Assembly: GCA_018268675.1 (NCBI GenBank)
Contig: JAFDWB010000094.1
Span: 124,001-188,000, forward strand
Direction: 5' to 3'
DNA: 64,000 nt
From: Actinomycetota bacterium
Lineage (GTDB): Bacteria > Actinomycetota > Thermoleophilia > Solirubrobacterales > 70-9
In this document: positions 2,273 through 54,167 of the stretch, piece by piece
Position numbering within the stretch: position 1 is the stretch's first letter
Layout: every line of letters starts with the position of its first letter
The notes under the pieces: generated by a model
The model's input: the letters and a program-made list of their open reading frames with translations, nothing else
The model's database searches: none
Told to the model about the DNA's origin: nothing
Translations under genes and position numbers: made by a program

Positions 2273-3492
2273 TGCCTCGCCCCGCCAAAGGTCAGGTGAT
2301 CGAGCCCAAGGACGGTCGTGCCTGGGCCATCCGGTTCCGCGCCGGAGGGAGGCGGCGCTACGTAACCTTGGGCACGTCCGAGGAGGGCTGGAGCCGGCAG
2401 AAGGCGGAGGCGGAGCTGCGTCACGTCCTCGCCGACGTCGAGCGGGGTGTCTGGCAACCCTACGAGCCTCCGCCGGCCGAGGTGCCGGCGGAGGTGCCGA
2501 CCTTCCACCGCTTCTCGACCGACTGGCTGCGCGCGAGGGAAGGGGAATTGCGCCCGAGGACGGTGCACGACTACGAATGGTGCCTGTCCAACCACCTACT
2601 CCCATACTTCCGGCTTCACCGGCTCGACGAGATCGATGTCGCTGCGGTCGACGCCTACAAGGCATCCAAGGTGAAAGAAGGCCGCATCGCGGGCGCCCAG
2701 ATCAACAAGACCCTGAAGGCGCTCGCCATGATCCTCGACGCGGCCATCGAATATGGGGTCATCGACAAGGCGAACCCGGCCCGCGGTCGGCGTCGACGCG
2801 TAAAAGCTGATCCTCCGGCGCGGACCTGGGTCGAGCCCGAGCAGCTGATCGCCCTGCTCGAGGCGGCGCCGAAGGGCCACCGCATCATCGTGGCAACGCT
2901 CGCCGGCGCCGGGCTCCGGGTGGGGGAGGCCTGTGCGCTGCGCTGGCGTGATCTCGATCTCTCGACCTCTACGCTCACCGTGCGGGCCTCGAAGACCAAC
3001 ACCGGGCGGCGCGAGGTCGATCTTCCCCGCGCGCTCGTCGACGAATTGTGGACCCTGGCCGCCAGCAGCCCCCTGACCGAGCCCGACGATCCTGTCTTCA
3101 TCGGGACTCACAGGACGCCCCAGACGCCCGCAAATGTGAGCAGGCGGCTGAAGACCGCGATCAAGAGGGCGAACCCGAAGCTGGAAGGCCTGGGTATCGC
3201 GCCGATCAGCGAGCGCGTGACGCCGCACTCTCTTCGCCGCACCTACGCAAGCCTTCGCTATGCCTGCGGTGATGACGTCGTCTACGTCGCCGAGCAAGGC
3301 GGCTGGTCGGACCCCTCTTTCCCGATCCGCGTCTACGCTAGGTCGGTGCGACGGCGACAGAAGCTCTCCGGAGACCACCTCGAGGCCTTTGATTCGGCCA
3401 TCCATTGGGCAGCATTGGGCAGCGAGGTCGCATCCCGGTCTCAGGAGAGCCCCGAGGGCGTCGCCGAAAGAGCCCAGGAACCGGCAGCTTAG
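2272..3492 (+). CDS. Tyrosine recombinase / phage-type integrase
   Basis: A 406-residue site-specific recombinase. Residues 75-170 form a SAM-like core-binding domain (FSTDWLRAREGELRPRTVHD, then LLPYFRLHRLDEI). The catalytic domain follows from about 185. Catalytic residues are visible: Arg216 in AGAGLRVGEACALRW, Lys241, His319-x-x-Arg322 in TPHSLRRTY, Trp345 in GGWSD replacing the usual second His, and the nucleophile Tyr355 in IRVYARS. The Trp substitution is common in this superfamily. The N-terminus has an Arm-type MPRPAKGQVIEP...RYVTLG segment. It ends 19 bases before tRNA-Arg and reads toward it, which fits integration at that tRNA. Length and all key residues suggest an active enzyme. 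Confidence 0.93.
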   Translation: MPRPAKGQVIEPKDGRAWAIRFRAGGRRRYVTLGTSEEGWSRQKAEAELRHVLADVERGVWQPYEPPPAEVPAEVPTFHRFSTDWLRAREGELRPRTVHDYEWCLSNHLLPYFRLHRLDEIDVAAVDAYKASKVKEGRIAGAQINKTLKALAMILDAAIEYGVIDKANPARGRRRRVKADPPARTWVEPEQLIALLEAAPKGHRIIVATLAGAGLRVGEACALRWRDLDLSTSTLTVRASKTNTGRREVDLPRALVDELWTLAASSPLTEPDDPVFIGTHRTPQTPANVSRRLKTAIKRANPKLEGLGIAPISERVTPHSLRRTYASLRYACGDDVVYVAEQGGWSDPSFPIRVYARSVRRRQKLSGDHLEAFDSAIHWAALGSEVASRSQESPEGVAERAQEPAA

Positions 3493-9253: not shown

Positions 9254-9291
9254 CAGCCCGGGCCGGGCTCGGGCCCGGTGCGTTCGCACTT
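9240..9291. repeat. Long intergenic hairpin overlapping family D copy 1
   Basis: AAGTGCCAACGCACC (9240-9254) pairs with GGTGCGTTCGCACTT (9277-9291) at 14 of 15 positions, and the GC-rich middle CCCGGGCC/GGGCTCGGGC can extend it. It shares its left arm with the family D unit, so the two structures are mutually exclusive. Confidence 0.6.
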
Positions 9292-9417
9292 ATCTACACC
9301 TGTCGTAGCCGACTGCGAACTCACGGGCATGGCGCAGACCAAGGCGCGGCCATCGCCCTCATAACCAGCCGAGGCATGAGGGGGATGGCCGCCCCGCCGG
9401 GCGGCAGCCGGCCCCGC

Positions 9418-22603: not shown

Positions 22604-23329
22604 ATGACCGTCACCGTCCGCCTCTTCGCGATCCTGCGCGAGCGCGCCGGGCGCGACTCGGTGGAGATCGAGCTTCCCGAGGGCGCCACCGTCGCCGACG
22701 CCTTGGAGCGCCTCGCCGCCGTCCCCGGTCTCGGCCCGCTGGTCGGCCGCCTGCCCCTGCGGATGGCCGTGAACCGCGAGTACGCCGACGCCGGCGCGAG
22801 CATCGGCCCCGGCGACGAGCTCGCCGCGATCCCGCCGATCTCCGGCGGCGCCCCCGCGGCCGACGACGACGCTTGTCCTCGATACGAAGACAAGCGTCGG
22901 GGGAGGACGCACGTTTCCGTGACGGATGAGGGGCTTTCGGCGGAGCGGCTCTCGCAGTGGGTCGGGGACGCGGGGGCGGGGGCGATCGTCGTCTTCCAGG
23001 GGGTGACGCGCGAGGTCGCCAGCCTCGACTACGAGGCCTACCGGGAGATGGCGGAGGAACGGATGGTCGAGATCCTCGCCGAGTGCGTGGAGCGCCACCA
23101 GCTGCTCGCCGCCGCCGCCGAGCACCGGGTCGGCAACGTGCCACTCGGTGAGCCGGCGGTCGTCGTCGCCGTCTCCGCCGGTCACCGTGGGGAAGCCTTC
23201 GAGGGCGCCCGCGAGGCGATCGACCGGATCAAGGCCGAGGCGCCGATCTGGAAGCGCGAGCTCGACGGCGCGGGCGAGGGCGAGTGGGTCGAGGGCACCG
23301 CCGCCCCGGAAGCGGAAGGCGCCGCGTGA
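22604..23329 (+). CDS. moaX: MoaD-MoaE fused molybdopterin synthase
   Basis: A 241-residue fusion of both molybdopterin synthase subunits, adding the dithiolene sulfurs to cPMP. Residues 1-82 are MoaD (TVRLFAILRERAGRDSVEIE) ending PPISGG at Gly81-Gly82, which must be thiocarboxylated. MoaE begins near residue 108 with LSQWVGDAGAGAIVVFQGVT, then EHRVGNVPLGEPAVVVAVSA and APIWKRE with the catalytic Lys. Since Gly82 is internal, the protein must be cut there, as is known for mycobacterial MoaX. The 20-odd residue linker includes DDACPRYEDKRRG encoded by a perfect palindrome whose second copy is intergenic. Its stop overlaps moaC. Confidence 0.92.
   Translation: MTVTVRLFAILRERAGRDSVEIELPEGATVADALERLAAVPGLGPLVGRLPLRMAVNREYADAGASIGPGDELAAIPPISGGAPAADDDACPRYEDKRRGRTHVSVTDEGLSAERLSQWVGDAGAGAIVVFQGVTREVASLDYEAYREMAEERMVEILAECVERHQLLAAAAEHRVGNVPLGEPAVVVAVSAGHRGEAFEGAREAIDRIKAEAPIWKRELDGAGEGEWVEGTAAPEAEGAA
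22867..22899. repeat. Dispersed palindrome, family F, copy 1 (inside the MoaD-MoaE gene)
   Basis: CGACGCTTGTC (22867-22877) and GACAAGCGTCG (22889-22899) form a perfect 11-bp stem around CTCGATACGAA. On the opposite strand it matches the intergenic copy at 30677-30709, including flanking C-runs. It falls in frame at residues 88-99 of the fusion, in the linker. Confidence 0.8.
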
Positions 23330-25565: not shown

Positions 25566-25684
25566 GGGTTCGGGCCCCTAGCGCCAGCTGCCGCCCGACG
25601 GCGCGCCCCCCTCATGCTTCGGCGGTTATGAGGGCGACGGGCGCGCCTAGGCGTGCGCCGGGACCAGGGAGCCCCGGCCTTCCC

Positions 25685-25721
25685 GTGTTCCCTACTTGCA
25701 CATAGGCCAAGTAGGGAACAC
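25685..25721. repeat. Dispersed palindrome, family A, copy 1
   Basis: GTGTTCCCTACTTG (25685-25698) pairs perfectly with CAAGTAGGGAACAC (25708-25721) around a 9-base loop. Flanks CCCCGGCCTTCC before and CGCAGGG after are shared with copy 2 at 54052-54090, as is a CCTAGGC-like stretch about 30 bases upstream. It lies in the convergent gap 25566-25900, which holds no gene. Confidence 0.8.
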
Positions 25722-25754
25722 CGCAGGGGCCGACCGACCGGGCCCGGGCCACAC

Positions 25755-26700: not shown

Positions 26701-27555
26701 TCAGCCGACGCTGCGGGCGCCGATCAGGTGGGAGCCCCAGTAGCCGCTGTTCAGCGGGTGTTCCATCACGCCCTGGGACGTCGCCGAGATCGCCGTTTCG
26801 GGGCCGAGGGCGATGCCGACGTGCGAGGCGCCCGGCCCGTCGGTGTCGAAGAAGACGAGGTCGCCGGCGGTGATTTCCGTGAGGTTGACCGGTTCGCCGA
26901 ATTCGAACTGGGCGAAGCTCGTGCGCGGCAGCTGAATCCCGGCCTGGGCGAAGGCGTAGACCATCAGCCCGGAGCAGTCGAACGAGGTGGGCCCGGTGGC
27001 GCCCCACTGGTAGGGCGCCCCGATCGCGGCCCGCGCGGCTTCGATCGCCGGCAGGACCGAGGTCGGCGCGGCGGCGGTCGGCGGGGGAGGCGCCTTGGGC
27101 GCGGGCGCCGTCACCGGGATCCGCAGCAGGAGCAGGACGCGAACGTGCGGGCGGCCGTCCGCGGTCAGGTGGTGGGCGCGCTGGAAGCGGCGGATCGCGG
27201 CGCGGGTCTGGGGGCCGAGGACGCCGTCGACGGGAACCCGGAGCTTGCGCTGCAGGCGCATGATCTGGCTGCGGGTGAGCCGCGCGACCGGCCCGCCGCC
27301 GGCTTCTGGAGCGGGGGCCGGGGCGGTTTCGGTGGGCGCCGGTTCGGTCGGCACCGGTTCCGGAGGGGCGCTCGCGCTCGTCGGCGCCGCACCGCCGGGA
27401 GCCGCGGCACCACCGGTCGTCGCCGCGTTCGCGGACGCCGCGCCCGCGAGCGCCATCAACAGCACCGCCGCGGCGATCCGCAGGGTCAGGGACCGCCGAT
27501 AGTCCCGGCCGCTTCGCCGGGCGCTCGGGGTGGGGTTCGTCTGGCCTCGCTCCAT
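26701..27555 (-). CDS. Secreted NlpC/P60 peptidase with peptidoglycan-binding domain
   Basis: A 284-residue exported hydrolase. Signal peptide: basic RDYRRSLTLRIAAAVLLMAL then AGAASANAA. After a Pro/Ala linker, residues about 85-130 form a PG_binding_1 domain (LTRSQIMRLQRKLRVPVDGV, LGPQTRAAIRRFQRAH). The C-terminal NlpC/P60 domain has APYQWGATGPTSFDCSGLMV with the catalytic Cys, then AGDLVFFDTDGPGASHVGIA with the His. It would cut peptidoglycan stem peptides. Start ATG 27555. A ydaO-type c-di-AMP riboswitch lies immediately upstream. Confidence 0.9.
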   Translation of the reverse strand: MERGQTNPTPSARRSGRDYRRSLTLRIAAAVLLMALAGAASANAATTGGAAAPGGAAPTSASAPPEPVPTEPAPTETAPAPAPEAGGGPVARLTRSQIMRLQRKLRVPVDGVLGPQTRAAIRRFQRAHHLTADGRPHVRVLLLLRIPVTAPAPKAPPPPTAAAPTSVLPAIEAARAAIGAPYQWGATGPTSFDCSGLMVYAFAQAGIQLPRTSFAQFEFGEPVNLTEITAGDLVFFDTDGPGASHVGIALGPETAISATSQGVMEHPLNSGYWGSHLIGARSVG

Positions 27556-27559
27556 CGTT

Positions 27560-27700
27560 GAAATGCCTGCGAGGTGAGCTGACGGGCTCGCGCTCAACGT
27601 GCGCTACGTCCGAAGACGATTCGCCCCAGGCCGCCACTTCGGCGACCGGTGGTTCCCCCGCTCCTCGGATCCTCGGGGACCCGACGATTAGGCAGACCGA
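27560..27700 (-). ncRNA. ydaO/yuaA-type c-di-AMP riboswitch
   Basis: Read on the minus strand, the leader contains GGAGCGGGGGAACCAC near 27650, then GGGGCGAATC near 27625 and CCGTCAGCTCACCTCGCAGG near 27575, in the order and wording of the ydaO-yuaA riboswitch. It ends about five bases before the NlpC/P60 start. In actinobacteria this riboswitch controls cell-wall peptidase genes and turns them off when c-di-AMP is high. Boundaries are approximate. Confidence 0.85.
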
Positions 27701-27770
27701 CACTCAAGCACATCGAGGCGACGCCGTCCAGGGCAGATCGATCGGCCGCCCCCACAAGGGGGCCGACCGC

Positions 27771-30648: not shown

Positions 30649-30676
30649 CGACCCATCGTCCCAGACCCGCCGCCCC

Positions 30677-30709
30677 CGACGCTTGTCTGCGTATCGAAGA
30701 CAAGCGTCG
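30677..30709. repeat. Dispersed palindrome, family F, copy 2
   Basis: CGACGCTTGTCT (30677-30688) and AGACAAGCGTCG (30698-30709) form a perfect 12-bp stem around GCGTATCGA. It matches copy 1 in the MoaD-MoaE gene on the opposite strand, including the loop GTATCGA and C-rich flank. It lies between the divergent MBL gene and MBL remnant. Confidence 0.8.
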
Positions 30710-30721
30710 TAGGCTCGGACC

Positions 30722-31841: not shown

Positions 31842-31874
31842 CCCGCGGGCCTAGAGGTGGATTCAAGGGACGCG

Positions 31875-31924
31875 GGCCGTCTCGTCCACGACCCTGGCGG
31901 GCTGTGGCCGTGGCCGAGACGGCC
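31875..31924. repeat. Dispersed palindrome, family C, copy 1
   Basis: GGCCGTCTCGTCCACG (31875-31890) pairs with CGTGGCCGAGACGGCC (31909-31924) at 15 of 16 positions around an 18-base spacer. The 50-base unit is nearly identical to 45511-45560. Downstream flank TTCGGGGAGAGGA also matches. The gap 31842-32245 has no gene. Confidence 0.8.
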
Positions 31925-32029
31925 GGGTGTTCGGGGAGAGGACGAAGGGTCGCGGGGGAGTTACGGGAGCGCCACGGGTCCGTCACCGAAGTGGGACCTC
32001 GCCGTCGCCAGGACGACGCCCTCCGTCCA

Positions 32030-32068
32030 GCTGTTCCTTATGCCGGTATACCGGCCATAAGGAACAGC
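32030..32068. repeat. Dispersed palindrome, family B, copy 1
   Basis: GCTGTTCCTTATG (32030-32042) pairs perfectly with CATAAGGAACAGC (32056-32068), and the centre CCGGTATACCGG is itself a palindrome. The unit and about 120 bases around it, including CGCCCTCCGTCCAG before and GTTCCTCCCGTCTTCCTCAG after, match copy 2 at 45693-45745. Confidence 0.82.
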
Positions 32069-32245
32069 GGAAGGGAGTCTGGCCGAGGAGAGGGGAGATC
32101 GTCACAGTTCCTCCCGTCTTCCTCAGACGCCTGGGCGGGGCCTCGATCCCGGCGCTCCTCTCACACGAGACGCCCAGGATGCACCTCGGACGGCCGCCTC
32201 GGCCCGGAGCCTCGGCCGTCTCTCCTCGCAACGGAATCGATTGAC

Positions 32246-42267: not shown

Positions 42268-42648
42268 ATGCCAAAACAGACCAAATCGACCCGAAAAACC
42301 GCGGCGAAAAAAGCGGCGGCGACCCGGTCGAAAAAACCCGCAAAAGCTGCCGGCAAAGGCGCGAAAAAAACCGCCAAAGCCGGGAGTGCGAAAAAAGCAA
42401 CGAAAGCCGTGAAAAAAGCGACCAAAGCCGCGGCGAAAAAACCGGCTGCGAAAAAAGCCTCGGCGAAAAAAGCGGCGAAAAAACCCGCCAAAGCCGCGGC
42501 GAGAAAAACGACGGCGAAATCGAAAGCCAAACCGAAAGCCAAATCGGCCAAAGCGAAATCGACGAAAGCGAAATCGACTTCGAAAGCCGCCAAACCGAAA
42601 GCCAAAACGGCGAGAGCGAAAGCGGCGAAAAGAAGCACGAAAAAATAG
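42268..42648 (+). CDS. Lysine/alanine-rich histone H1-like protein
   Basis: A 126-residue, extremely basic protein made almost only of Ala, Lys, Ser, Thr and Pro (KKAAATRSKKPAKAAGKGAK, KATKAVKKATKAAAKKPAAK, KAKSAKAKSTKAKSTSKAAK). It resembles histone H1 C-tails and bacterial AlgP/HctB or Lsr2-tail-like proteins and would bind DNA nonspecifically. The lysine codons are overwhelmingly AAA, in a genome that otherwise favours AAG and GC, with runs up to seven A's. GAGG lies before the ATG at 42268. A transferred or selectively biased gene is possible. Confidence 0.85.
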   Translation: MPKQTKSTRKTAAKKAAATRSKKPAKAAGKGAKKTAKAGSAKKATKAVKKATKAAAKKPAAKKASAKKAAKKPAKAAARKTTAKSKAKPKAKSAKAKSTKAKSTSKAAKPKAKTARAKAAKRSTKK

Positions 42649-45439: not shown

Positions 45440-45510
45440 CTGGGCAAGGCTAGACGGTTGGTTCGGGGTGTCGGGGCCGGGGAAGCTGGCGCCCGATGGC
45501 ACAAGGGACG

Positions 45511-45560
45511 GGCCGTCTCGGCCACGACCCTGGCGGGCTGTGGCCGTGGCCGAGACGGCC
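45511..45560. repeat. Dispersed palindrome, family C, copy 2
   Basis: GGCCGTCTCGGCCACG (45511-45526) pairs perfectly with CGTGGCCGAGACGGCC (45545-45560). The 18-base spacer is identical to that of copy 1 at 31875-31924. Part of a 538-base gap (45440-45977) that holds families C, D and B in order. Confidence 0.82.
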
Positions 45561-45611
45561 GGGTCTCCGGGGAGAGGAAGGATCGGCACGCCGCAGCAGG
45601 GACGCACGCCC

Positions 45612-45662
45612 CGGTGAGTTCGCAGAAACCCGCGCCATGCGCGGGAAAGTGCGAACTCACCG
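45612..45662. repeat. Dispersed hairpin repeat, family D, copy 2
   Basis: CGGTGAGTTCGCA (45612-45624) pairs perfectly with TGCGAACTCACCG (45650-45662), a 13-bp outer stem, with inner CCCGCGC/GCGCGGG at 45629-45645 and a CAT loop. GAAA and AAAG face each other between the stems. It is inserted between the C and B units here, but not in the other C-B module. Confidence 0.82.
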
Positions 45663-45692
45663 TGAGGGGACGGTGCGCGCGAAGGACGCCCT

Positions 45693-45745
45693 CCGTCCAG
45701 CTGTTCCTTATGCCGGTATGTCGGCCATAAGGAACAGCTGGACGG
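45693..45745. repeat. Dispersed palindrome, family B, copy 2
   Basis: CCGTCCAGCTGTTCCTTATG (45693-45712) pairs perfectly with CATAAGGAACAGCTGGACGG (45726-45745), a 20-bp stem around CCGGTATGTCGGC. Downstream it shares GAGATC...GTTCCTCCCGTCTTCC with copy 1. Confidence 0.85.
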
Positions 45746-45977
45746 GGTCGGGCCGAGGAAAGGGGAGATCCGTCACCGTTCCTCCCGTCTTCCTCAGACG
45801 CCCAGGACGCAACACGGACGGCCGCCCCGCCCCCGGACAACGCGCCTTCGTCCCTCCCCCGACCCACCTCGGACGTCCCGCCGGCCCCGAACGCCGCCCC
45901 GCGCCCACATCCCCCGCCAACAGTCGCGGCGCGCTAATCTACTTAAACCTGATCGGAATTAAGGAAGAGGAGTCAAG

Positions 45978-51247: not shown

Positions 51248-53014
51248 TCAGTTGCCGTGCGCGGACTTGTTGAGGCCCGCGGTCGGCTTGCTGACGATGA
51301 CCTTCGCGCAGTCCTGCGGTTCGGGGTCGATCTTGTCGACGATCGCCGTCCCTTCCGGGCGGCCCTTTTCACCGCACTGGATGTACCAGTCGCGGACGGA
51401 GTCGGTGGCGACGATGACGTCGTTCCCGCCGCGGCCGAAGAAGCTGTCGACGCCGGGCTGGCCGATCATCACGTTGGCGCGCGAGTCGCCGATCAGCATG
51501 TCGTTGTCGAAGGAGCCCTCGATGTTCTCGTCGGAGCGCGGGAGGCGGACTTTGTCGCAGTGCTTGACCGCGTCGATCCAGGCCCAGCCTTGGGCCAGCG
51601 AGATGTAGAGCGTGCCGGGGTGGGCCTGGGTCTCGGCGAAGGAGGCGTTGTCTTCCCCGGGGCCGCCGTCGAGGACTCCGCCCGCGCAGCCGCCGCCCGC
51701 CGCCAGCAGGTCGCCGCCGCCTTCGCCGTAGAGGTAGGTCGGCCCGGGCAGGCCGCCGATCAGCCCGTCGGAGCCTTCGCCGCCGTAGAGGTGATCGGAG
51801 CCGGGGCCTGACTGGAGCAGGTCTTCCTCGGGGCCGCCGTGGACCGTGTCGTTGCCGTCGCCGCCGTTGACGCGGACGAAGTCGACCGCTTCGAGGCTGC
51901 TCTTGACTTCGAAGCTGTCGTTGCCGGGCCCGAGATCGGCCATCAGCCAGCGCGCCGGGCCGAAGGTCGGGCAGGTGACCTGCTTCGGTTCGCCGGGCGT
52001 GGGCGCGCAGTCGGAGCCTGCGGCGAGGCGCGCCGCGCCGCTCACCGTGAAGTACCCGGTTGCCCGCGGCGCTTCGCTCCCCTTCGGTTCGGCGGGCGTG
52101 GCTTCGCCGGGAGCGCCCGCGGTCCCCGCTTCGATTTCCGTGTAGGAGACGGTGAGGTGGTCGGGGCCGGCGCCGCCGACGATCTGCAGCCCGCCGCCGC
52201 CTTCCGGGCTGGGGTCGAGGGTGACGTAGGCGGAGCCGCGCGGCGCCGGTTCCCTGCCGCAGGAGATGCGGACCGCACCGCCCTCGCACTTGTCGTCGCC
52301 CTGGCCGCCGTTCAGCGTGTCGCGCCCGCCGCCGCCGCGGATCGTGTCGTTGCCGGGCCCGCCGACGATCAGGTTGGGGTGCTTGTCGCCGATCAGGGTG
52401 TCGTGGAAGGCGGAGCCTTCGATCGACTCGAAGCGGAAGAGGCGGTCGTGGCCGTCGCCGAGCGCCTTGTGCCGGGGCAGCGAGACCCAGACACCGCTGC
52501 CCTTGCGGCCCGCCACCGCGGTCGAGAAGGAGGCGATGTCACCCTTGCCGGGGCCGCCGTCCATGCGGTCGTAGCCGTAGTCGCCGCGGACGAGGTCTTC
52601 GTTGCCGGGGCCGCCGTTGACGGTGTCGATGCCGAGCCCGCCGCTCACTTCGTCGCGGTTGCCGGGGCCGCCGCTGACGTGGTCGTCGCCGAGGTCGCCG
52701 AAGACGCGGTCGGTCCCCTGGCCGCCTTCGATCCAGTCGTTGCCGCGGCCGCCGTGGATCAGATCGTTCCCCGGGCCGCCGCAGATGACGTCGTTGCCGA
52801 GCCCGCCGTAGACGGTGTCGTCGCCCGGCCCGGCCCAGATCACGTCGGCCTTGTCGGTGCCGTGGATGACGTCGTTGCCGCCGGTGCCGACGATCGTCGC
52901 CTTCCTCCCGTCGCACATCGGCGTGGCGCCGGTTTCGGCGGCGGCGGGGGTGACGGCGAGGAAGGCGCCGATCGCGCAGGCGAGCAGGACGATGGGGACG
53001 AGACGGCGCGACAC
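51248..53014 (-). CDS. RTX-repeat (hemolysin-type calcium-binding) exported protein
   Basis: A 588-residue protein. Starts at GTG 53014 with SRRLVPIVLLACAIGAFLAV, a signal peptide ending TPAAAE. Residues about 40-155 and 175-215 carry tandem GGxGxDxU nonapeptides such as GGNDVIHGTDKADVIWAGPG and GDDTVYGGLGNDVICGGPGN; another set lies near 340-420 and 500-530. These bind Ca2+ and form beta-rolls. No lipase or protease catalytic domain was recognised between them. RTX repeats are usually exported; here a Sec signal rather than a type I system is used. Highly repetitive, so assembly errors are possible. Confidence 0.87.
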   Translation of the reverse strand: MSRRLVPIVLLACAIGAFLAVTPAAAETGATPMCDGRKATIVGTGGNDVIHGTDKADVIWAGPGDDTVYGGLGNDVICGGPGNDLIHGGRGNDWIEGGQGTDRVFGDLGDDHVSGGPGNRDEVSGGLGIDTVNGGPGNEDLVRGDYGYDRMDGGPGKGDIASFSTAVAGRKGSGVWVSLPRHKALGDGHDRLFRFESIEGSAFHDTLIGDKHPNLIVGGPGNDTIRGGGGRDTLNGGQGDDKCEGGAVRISCGREPAPRGSAYVTLDPSPEGGGGLQIVGGAGPDHLTVSYTEIEAGTAGAPGEATPAEPKGSEAPRATGYFTVSGAARLAAGSDCAPTPGEPKQVTCPTFGPARWLMADLGPGNDSFEVKSSLEAVDFVRVNGGDGNDTVHGGPEEDLLQSGPGSDHLYGGEGSDGLIGGLPGPTYLYGEGGGDLLAAGGGCAGGVLDGGPGEDNASFAETQAHPGTLYISLAQGWAWIDAVKHCDKVRLPRSDENIEGSFDNDMLIGDSRANVMIGQPGVDSFFGRGGNDVIVATDSVRDWYIQCGEKGRPEGTAIVDKIDPEPQDCAKVIVSKPTAGLNKSAHGN

Positions 53015-53980: not shown

Positions 53981-54051
53981 CGGGGAAAGCTGGCGCCCGG
54001 GCCGCCTGCCGCCCCTAGGCCTGCGCCAGATCGTGGGACCCCCGGCCTTCC

Positions 54052-54090
54052 GGTGTTCCTTACTTGCATATATGGCAAGTAAGGAACACC
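54052..54090. repeat. Dispersed palindrome, family A, copy 2
   Basis: GGTGTTCCTTACTTGC (54052-54067) pairs perfectly with GCAAGTAAGGAACACC (54075-54090) around ATATATG. It shares CCCCGGCCTTCC and CGCAGGG flanks with copy 1 at 25685-25721. It differs by paired changes in the stem (CCCTAC/GTAGGG versus CCTTAC/GTAAGG), evidence for selection on pairing or gene conversion. Confidence 0.85.
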
Positions 54091-54167
54091 GCAGGGATCG
54101 GGGGACGCCGGGCGCGCCCGGGCGCCGCGAGGTGCCGGCCGCCCGGCCCTTCGGGTACAACCGTTCT

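What the first reader, a model, noticed from the sequence alone, without database searches (positions are those of the whole stretch)
31860..32200. Composite C-B repeat module, second copy at 45500-45870
Two 300-400 bp modules carry a family C palindrome, then a family B palindrome, in the same order, with matching flanks (CGCCCTCCGTCCAG, GAGATC..GTTCCTCCCGTCTTCCTCAG, ACGCCCAGGA-GC). The second has an added family D hairpin between them. That modularity resembles BIME-type clustering or a mosaic element, and lies in both convergent and divergent gaps.
Basis: seen in the sequence. Interest (0 to 1): 0.74.

Follow-up and report, generated by a model that had tools for sequence, protein, structure and literature searches.

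The report
Mosaic palindromic mobile repeat, genus-specific
The two repeat modules are shortened copies of a roughly 600-base non-coding repeat, built from several DNA hairpins between two mirror-image end hairpins, that appears to have spread through the gaps between genes in a few related actinobacteria, although none of the enzymes known to move such repeats could be found.

Summary
The two modules align well outside the hairpins: hairpins 100/104 identical, flanks 185/217; flank-only score 87 against a background maximum of 33. They are not the basic unit. Both are internally deleted copies of a ~550-600 bp mosaic repeat: left end, hairpin C, optional D, B, F, hairpin G, right end. C and G carry the same 12-nt loop in inverted orientation, so the element has inverted terminal hairpins. 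Their stems covary strongly, and interior palindromes are exchanged between copies and species. At least 40 copies occur in this genome; relatives only in the larger genomes of one Solirubrobacterales genus. Of ten orthologous sites, eight are present/absent and two shared. Copies favour convergent gene gaps (47 of 87). No RAYT/Y1 transposase (12 genomes), clear target-site duplication or autonomous copy was found. Best reading: a non-autonomous, REPIN/MITE-like DNA element moved by an unidentified enzyme. It resembles BIME/REPIN in design but fails their defining tests: a new variant of a known kind. Mobility is inferred, not shown.

The parts
31863..32197 (+). Module 1: internally deleted copy of the mosaic element (partial left end, C, spacer, B, spacer, right end); F hairpin lost, G reduced to its 3' arm
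   Evidence: alignment with full copies; 19 further copies match over about 260-290 nt at 82-87%
31875..31924 (+). Left terminal hairpin (family C), loop CTGGCGGGCTGT
32023..32077 (.). Interior palindrome B (core 32030-32068)
32078..32129 (+). Conserved spacer between B and F, ends CTTCCTCAGACG
   Evidence: shared by both modules and by full copies
32129..32140 (.). Deletion scar where hairpin F is missing
   Evidence: comparison with full copy L029
32167..32179 (+). Remnant 3' arm of right terminal hairpin G
   Evidence: comparison with L029/L040
32182..32197 (+). Right-end motif CACCTCGGACGGCCGC
   Evidence: conserved at the right end of copies
45480..45829 (+). Module 2: internally deleted copy with left end, C, D, B, right end; F to G deleted
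45480..45509 (+). Left-end motif GGGAAGCTGGCGCCCGATGGCACAAGGGAC
   Evidence: shared by most full copies
45511..45560 (+). Left terminal hairpin C
45612..45662 (.). Interior palindrome D (optional module, also found alone in the genome)
45693..45745 (.). Interior palindrome B
45796..45803 (.). Deletion junction at microhomology AGACGCCC (F to G removed)
   Evidence: comparison with full copies

Best explanation
The modules are decayed copies of a non-autonomous, DNA-level mobile repeat. Its identity marks are two terminal hairpins in inverted orientation (C left, G right), each with a 12-nt loop CKGGCRGGCTGT and a stem of about 15-19 bp. Between them lies an exchangeable cargo of other palindromes. 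An unidentified trans-acting enzyme probably recognises the folded terminal hairpins (cruciform, or single-stranded DNA at the replication fork) and moves or copies what lies between. Copies settle, or survive, mainly between the 3' ends of convergent genes. Interior palindromes are later lost by slippage or microhomology deletion, replaced, or hit by insertion sequences. Shown: copy number, inverted ends, stem covariation, module exchange, site turnover between species, 3'-gap bias, IS insertion in the interior palindromes. Inferred: transposition itself, the folded-DNA intermediate, and the enzyme.
For: Copies: 40 scored places in the own genome (cap of the search; 230 first-look candidates). 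Terminal-hairpin pattern counts: G000 48, G003 35, G006 122, G007 27, G008 166, G011 216 (some double counts), zero in six congeners and three outgroups, 0-1 in the reversed control. In most loci with two hairpins the order is + then -. Covariation: 129 unique loop hits without any pairing filter give 89% Watson-Crick in 19 stem positions against 60% (max 65%) with arms shuffled; 16 of 19 positions show two or more pair types; G-T only 1%. Species-specific versions with exchanged interiors, also within one genome. Site turnover: 8 of 10 orthologous sites present/absent, one where the empty site has 4 bp between convergent stop codons. 3'-gap bias 47/33/6 convergent/tandem/divergent against 74/330/168 in other gaps. 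A full copy folds far better than shuffles as single-stranded DNA (z -10.7). Absent from 49 other family/order genomes.
Against: No transposition or excision event was seen; all genomes compared are different species. No unambiguous target-site duplication, and the outer ends vary (tandem ~33-bp units in L164), so the moved unit is not sharply bounded. No copy encloses its own transposase: the transposase genes found inside copies belong to insertion sequences with their own ends. RAYT/Y1 is absent; IS110, DDE_Tnp_1 and reverse transcriptase families are each missing from some element-bearing genomes. Two sites are shared between G006 and G011, so some copies are old. One copy (L003) has its right loop inverted.
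Confidence: 0.6

Rival explanations
1. Host-maintained 3'-end modules: arrays of strong hairpins between genes that act as bidirectional transcription terminators or insulators, or as binding sites for a nucleoid or topology protein (BIME-like role), spread and homogenised by recombination rather than by transposition.
For: Strong bias to convergent gaps, beyond what counting 3' ends alone predicts; solo palindromes of family H and others lie a few to some tens of bases after stop codons, one conserved at an orthologous position with a changed loop; stem pairing is conserved.
Against: The set of occupied sites differs between species; the family is absent from the smaller genomes of the same genus; inverted terminal hairpins with a conserved loop are not needed for termination; no T-tracts are seen next to the hairpins.
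Confidence: 0.2
2. Passive mosaic: palindromes breed by replication slippage, template switching and gene conversion, and elements accrete; no dedicated enzyme exists.
For: Microhomology deletion junctions in the window copies, tandem left-end units, D module flanked by a ~12-bp direct repeat, loop inversion in L003; no transposase found.
Against: Does not explain copies scattered over different intergenic sites with the same two inverted ends, nor the conserved asymmetric loop.
Confidence: 0.13
3. A structured non-coding RNA gene family or conserved 3'UTR element.
For: Strong predicted folding and stem covariation.
Against: The two ends carry the same loop on opposite strands, so one transcript could not show both in the same form; G-T pairs are about 1% of cells, fewer than RNA helices usually tolerate; no Rfam family at gathering score, only weak chance-like matches below it; the interior is not conserved between species.
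Confidence: 0.05

Closest known systems
REPIN (REP doublets forming hairpins; PMC3116915)
   Same: Two inverted hairpin-bearing ends define the unit; high copy, extragenic, species-specific, variable spacer, singlets look like remnants
   Different: REPINs in the paper are short (71 bp between the invariant 16-mers for GI) and tied to RAYT transposases; here the ends are 200-850 bp apart, stems 15-19 bp with a 12-nt loop, several other palindromes inside, and no Y1/RAYT gene in 12 congeneric genomes
BIME (bacterial interspersed mosaic element; PMC2817692)
   Same: Mosaic of palindromic units with conserved spacers, extragenic
   Different: Not built from alternating copies of one REP; ends and interior are different palindrome families, and interiors are swapped
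CGTC- and GTAG-tagged REP dimers (PMC3733652)
   Same: Hairpin dimers in opposite orientation, often heterodimers, mostly downstream of genes; the CGTC group also lacks a dedicated transposase
   Different: CGTC families there have 8-9 bp stems, 4-5 nt loops and an unpaired tag; here 15-19 bp stems, 12-nt loop, no unpaired GTAG/CGTC tag seen
MITEs (review PMC10969869)
   Same: Short non-coding repeats with inverted ends, present/absent between genomes
   Different: No clear target-site duplication, no parent insertion sequence with the same ends found
Repetitive or double hairpin elements of mitochondrial DNA (e.g. PMC4478555, PMC2800124)
   Same: Hairpin elements spread in intergenic DNA, mostly GC-rich
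   Different: Organellar; resemblance in kind only, no shared sequence tested

Membership tests
REP/REPIN (RAYT-mobilised) | A RAYT / Y1 (IS200/605-type) transposase in the genome | tested here: not met
   PF01797: 0 of 12 congeneric genomes, control rang in 5 known genomes; the genomes are draft assemblies
REP/REPIN (RAYT-mobilised) | Inverted pair of conserved hairpins as the unit | tested here: met
   + then - order in most two-hairpin loci (exception L003)
GTAG/CGTC-tagged REP | Short stem with unpaired GTAG or CGTC tag at its base | tested here: not met
   stem 15-19 bp, 12-nt loop, hairpin bases pair on into the flanks
BIME | Alternating REP units of one family with set spacers | tested here: not met
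   different palindrome families C, D, B, F, G in fixed order
BIME | Binding of gyrase, IHF or Pol I | not testable with these tools
   needs binding assays
MITE | Inverted ends shared with an autonomous parent element | tested here: inconclusive
   inverted ends yes; no copy with its own transposase among the loci read, but large parts of the relatives were not read
MITE | Target-site duplication | tested here: inconclusive
   filled/empty pairs are from different species and too diverged at the junctions; ends vary in length
Structured RNA (Rfam) | Match at gathering score | tested here: not met
   none over the modules; only sub-threshold matches
Phage- or plasmid-borne repeat | Occurrence in viral, phage or plasmid records | tested here: not met
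   no match

The most novel reading that the evidence does not exclude
A cargo-swapping, hairpin-ended mobile element of a new type: the terminal hairpins with the CKGGCRGGCTGT loop are recognised as folded DNA by an undescribed, RAYT-independent enzyme of this actinobacterial genus, and the interior is a replaceable cassette of palindromes.
Probability: 0.25. Interest if true: 0.82.

Novelty: new variant of a known kind. Interest (0 to 1): 0.6.

Why it matters
How REP-like palindromes spread in genomes without RAYT transposases is an open question (stated for CGTC REPs in PMC3733652). Here is a compact clade in which some congeners carry 27 to over 160 terminal hairpins and others none, with a conserved loop as bait, so the enzyme, if there is one, could be found by gene presence/absence and by loop binding. 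It also explains why these draft assemblies break inside many copies.

Tried and rejected
RAYT/Y1 as mover: none in 12 genomes. IS91-type Y2: no match, but the control rang nowhere, so uninformative. IS110-type, DDE_Tnp_1 and reverse transcriptase as mover: each absent from some carriers; rve-type genes occur in all carriers but also in three of the five small-genome congeners without elements, so not diagnostic. Transposase genes inside copies as autonomous versions: rejected, they are insertion sequences inserted into interior palindromes; in three copies (G008 L225 and L226, G003 L222) the insertion has its own ends GAGGCTGTCGC..GCGACAGCCTC, in L225 exactly at the dyad centre CCCCTATA / TATAGGGG, and an IS110-family one splits a B hairpin in G008. 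Rfam RNA: none. Viral, plasmid, phage origin: no match. Literature for this order: nothing found in the held library, which is not proof of absence.

Full report
CHECK OF THE OBSERVATION. The sequences at 31860-32200 and 45500-45870 hold the C and B palindromes in the same order, with D only in the second. A base-by-base alignment gives 100/104 identities in the hairpins and 185/217 in the aligned flanks; with the hairpins masked, the local alignment score is 87, against a maximum of 33 for 385 random window segments.

THE REAL UNIT. A search of the own genome (4.2 Mb, 95 contigs) with module 1 returned 40 scored places out of 230 first-look candidates. About nine of these lie at contig ends (C25, C84, C65, C93, C78, C74, C80, C86, C41), so the repeat breaks the assembly. 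Full copies (for instance L004, L007, L009, L016) run: left end GGGAAGCTGGCGCCCG..CAAGGGACG; hairpin C; spacer; optional D; spacer; palindrome B; spacer CCTCCCGTCTTCCTCAGACG; palindrome F (GCTGCAGCGATAAGTGTCGC.. or GCTGCAAGGATTTAGGTCGC..); spacer; hairpin G; right end CTCGGACGGCCGC..CCCGTCCCTCCCC; about 550-600 bp. Two subfamilies differ in B and F. Both window copies resemble the second and are deletion derivatives: module 1 lost F at its base and most of G; module 2 lost F to G between two AGACGCCC words. The D module in L027, L040 and L028 is flanked by a near-perfect 12-bp direct repeat (GAGGAAGGGTCG) that occurs once in D-less copies, which looks like one old insertion.

INVERTED TERMINAL HAIRPINS. 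C and G share the loop CKGGCRGGCTGT, on opposite strands. In relatives the same two ends occur with quite different stems and interiors. Most two-hairpin loci are + then -, 200-850 bp apart. Over 129 unique loop hits with no pairing filter, 89% of 19 stem positions are Watson-Crick, against 60% (maximum 65%) when arms are re-dealt; 16 of 19 positions have two or more pair types; G-T is 1%. Related sequences inflate such tests, but one representative for each of 64 distinct 5' arms still gives 85%. Recurrent mismatches (A.C at pair 3, T.C at pair 9) occur in several species. The opposite-strand symmetry and the lack of G-T pairs point to DNA rather than RNA; this step is inference.

DISTRIBUTION. 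Of 60 relatives searched, six had matches, all in the same genus and all with 3.4-4.7 Mb genomes; the 2.4-2.9 Mb congeners and 49 family/order genomes had none. Counts of the terminal hairpin: 48 in the own genome, 27-216 in five congeners, none elsewhere, control 0-1. Equating SZAS-9, SZAS-14 and 70-9 with G006, G008 and G011 rests on equal contig lengths; RYN_247 = G003 and SZAS-15 = G007 are guesses from hairpin type. No match in viral contigs, plasmids or phages.

MODULARITY. In G011, loci with near-identical left hairpins carry three different interior palindromes in the same place. Palindromes of families B, D, H, E and A also occur alone, H often just after stop codons.

SITES. With a simple codon-usage gene finder, 87 elements lie in 47 convergent, 33 tandem and 6 divergent gaps and 1 inside a call, against 74, 330 and 168 for other gaps of 30 bp or more (a few split copies are counted twice). 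In synteny, module 2 sits where four relatives have a ~1 kb gene that reads like a permease (judged by eye, not scanned), and the nearby gap at window 50830 holds a full element only in G006. Over all loci held, ten element sites could be compared with an orthologous gap in another species: eight are present/absent, two shared by G006 and G011. The cleanest pair is G006 L111 (filled) and G003 L093 (4 bp between convergent stops); no clear target duplication is visible there or at L039/L223.

INSERTION SEQUENCES USE THE PALINDROMES. In G008 and G003 three copies contain an IS with ends GAGGCTGTCGC../..GCGACAGCCTC, in G008 L225 exactly at the centre of CCCCTATAGGGG with TATA on both sides; another copy holds a different DDE element, and one an IS110-family element that splits hairpin B. 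This parallels insertion sequences that target REP sequences (PMC1525189, title and abstract only).

MECHANISM. The best-supported account is a non-autonomous DNA element whose folded ends are recognised by an enzyme in trans. Evidence is strongest for the ends (covariation plus inverted conserved loop) and for turnover of sites, and weakest for the enzyme: Y1/RAYT is absent; IS110, DDE_Tnp_1 and reverse transcriptase are patchy; rve is not diagnostic; the Y2 search is uninformative. The 3'-gap bias may be target choice or survival.

COMPARISON. It works like a REPIN enlarged with cargo, and like a mosaic BIME. It is not filed as either, since RAYT, tagged REP units and alternating REP structure were tested and not met. 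It is filed as a new variant of a known kind (palindromic, non-autonomous, interspersed repeats).

Noticed in passing
window 9276-9327; C93:103601-103715; L011 1196-1290: A second composite repeat: two D-type palindromes about 80 bp apart next to another hairpin (GGCGCGGCCATC..CCCTCAT..ATGAGGG..GATGGCCGCGCC), repeated at several places.
   Followed up: partly
window 25632-25728 and 54000-54096: Solo palindrome family E (GTGTTCCTTACTTGC..GCAAGTAAGGAACAC) with 97 nt of shared sequence at 81%.
   Followed up: no
window 22866-22906 and 30670-30710: Solo palindrome family A (CGACGCTTGTC..GACAAGCGTCG) in two inverted copies, 41 nt at 93%.
   Followed up: no
L183 9328-10048, L185 7337-8003; C82:108865, C93:73652, 189256, 206864: Palindrome family H (GTTGATGGGCCGAAAAC..GTTTTCGGCCCATCAAC), often just after stop codons, in several carrier species; at one orthologous site it is conserved with a changed loop, which suggests a terminator.
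   Followed up: partly
L003 about 1340-1400: Right terminal hairpin with its loop inverted between unchanged arms, unlike the other aligned copies.
   Followed up: no
L164 about 3130-3330: Left end of a copy extended into several tandem ~33-bp units GAAGCTGTCGCCCG..AAGGGATG.GGCC.
   Followed up: no
window 27549-27704: c-di-AMP riboswitch (ydaO/yuaA leader), 67 bits.
   Followed up: no
window 51248-53014: Gene with many 27-bp repeats (GCCGCC..GTCGTTGCC), perhaps calcium-binding nonapeptide repeats; not tested.
   Followed up: no
window 42268-42648: Small gene with lysine/alanine-rich repeats (AAAGCCGCGGCGAAAAAACC..), possibly a histone-like tail; not tested.
   Followed up: no
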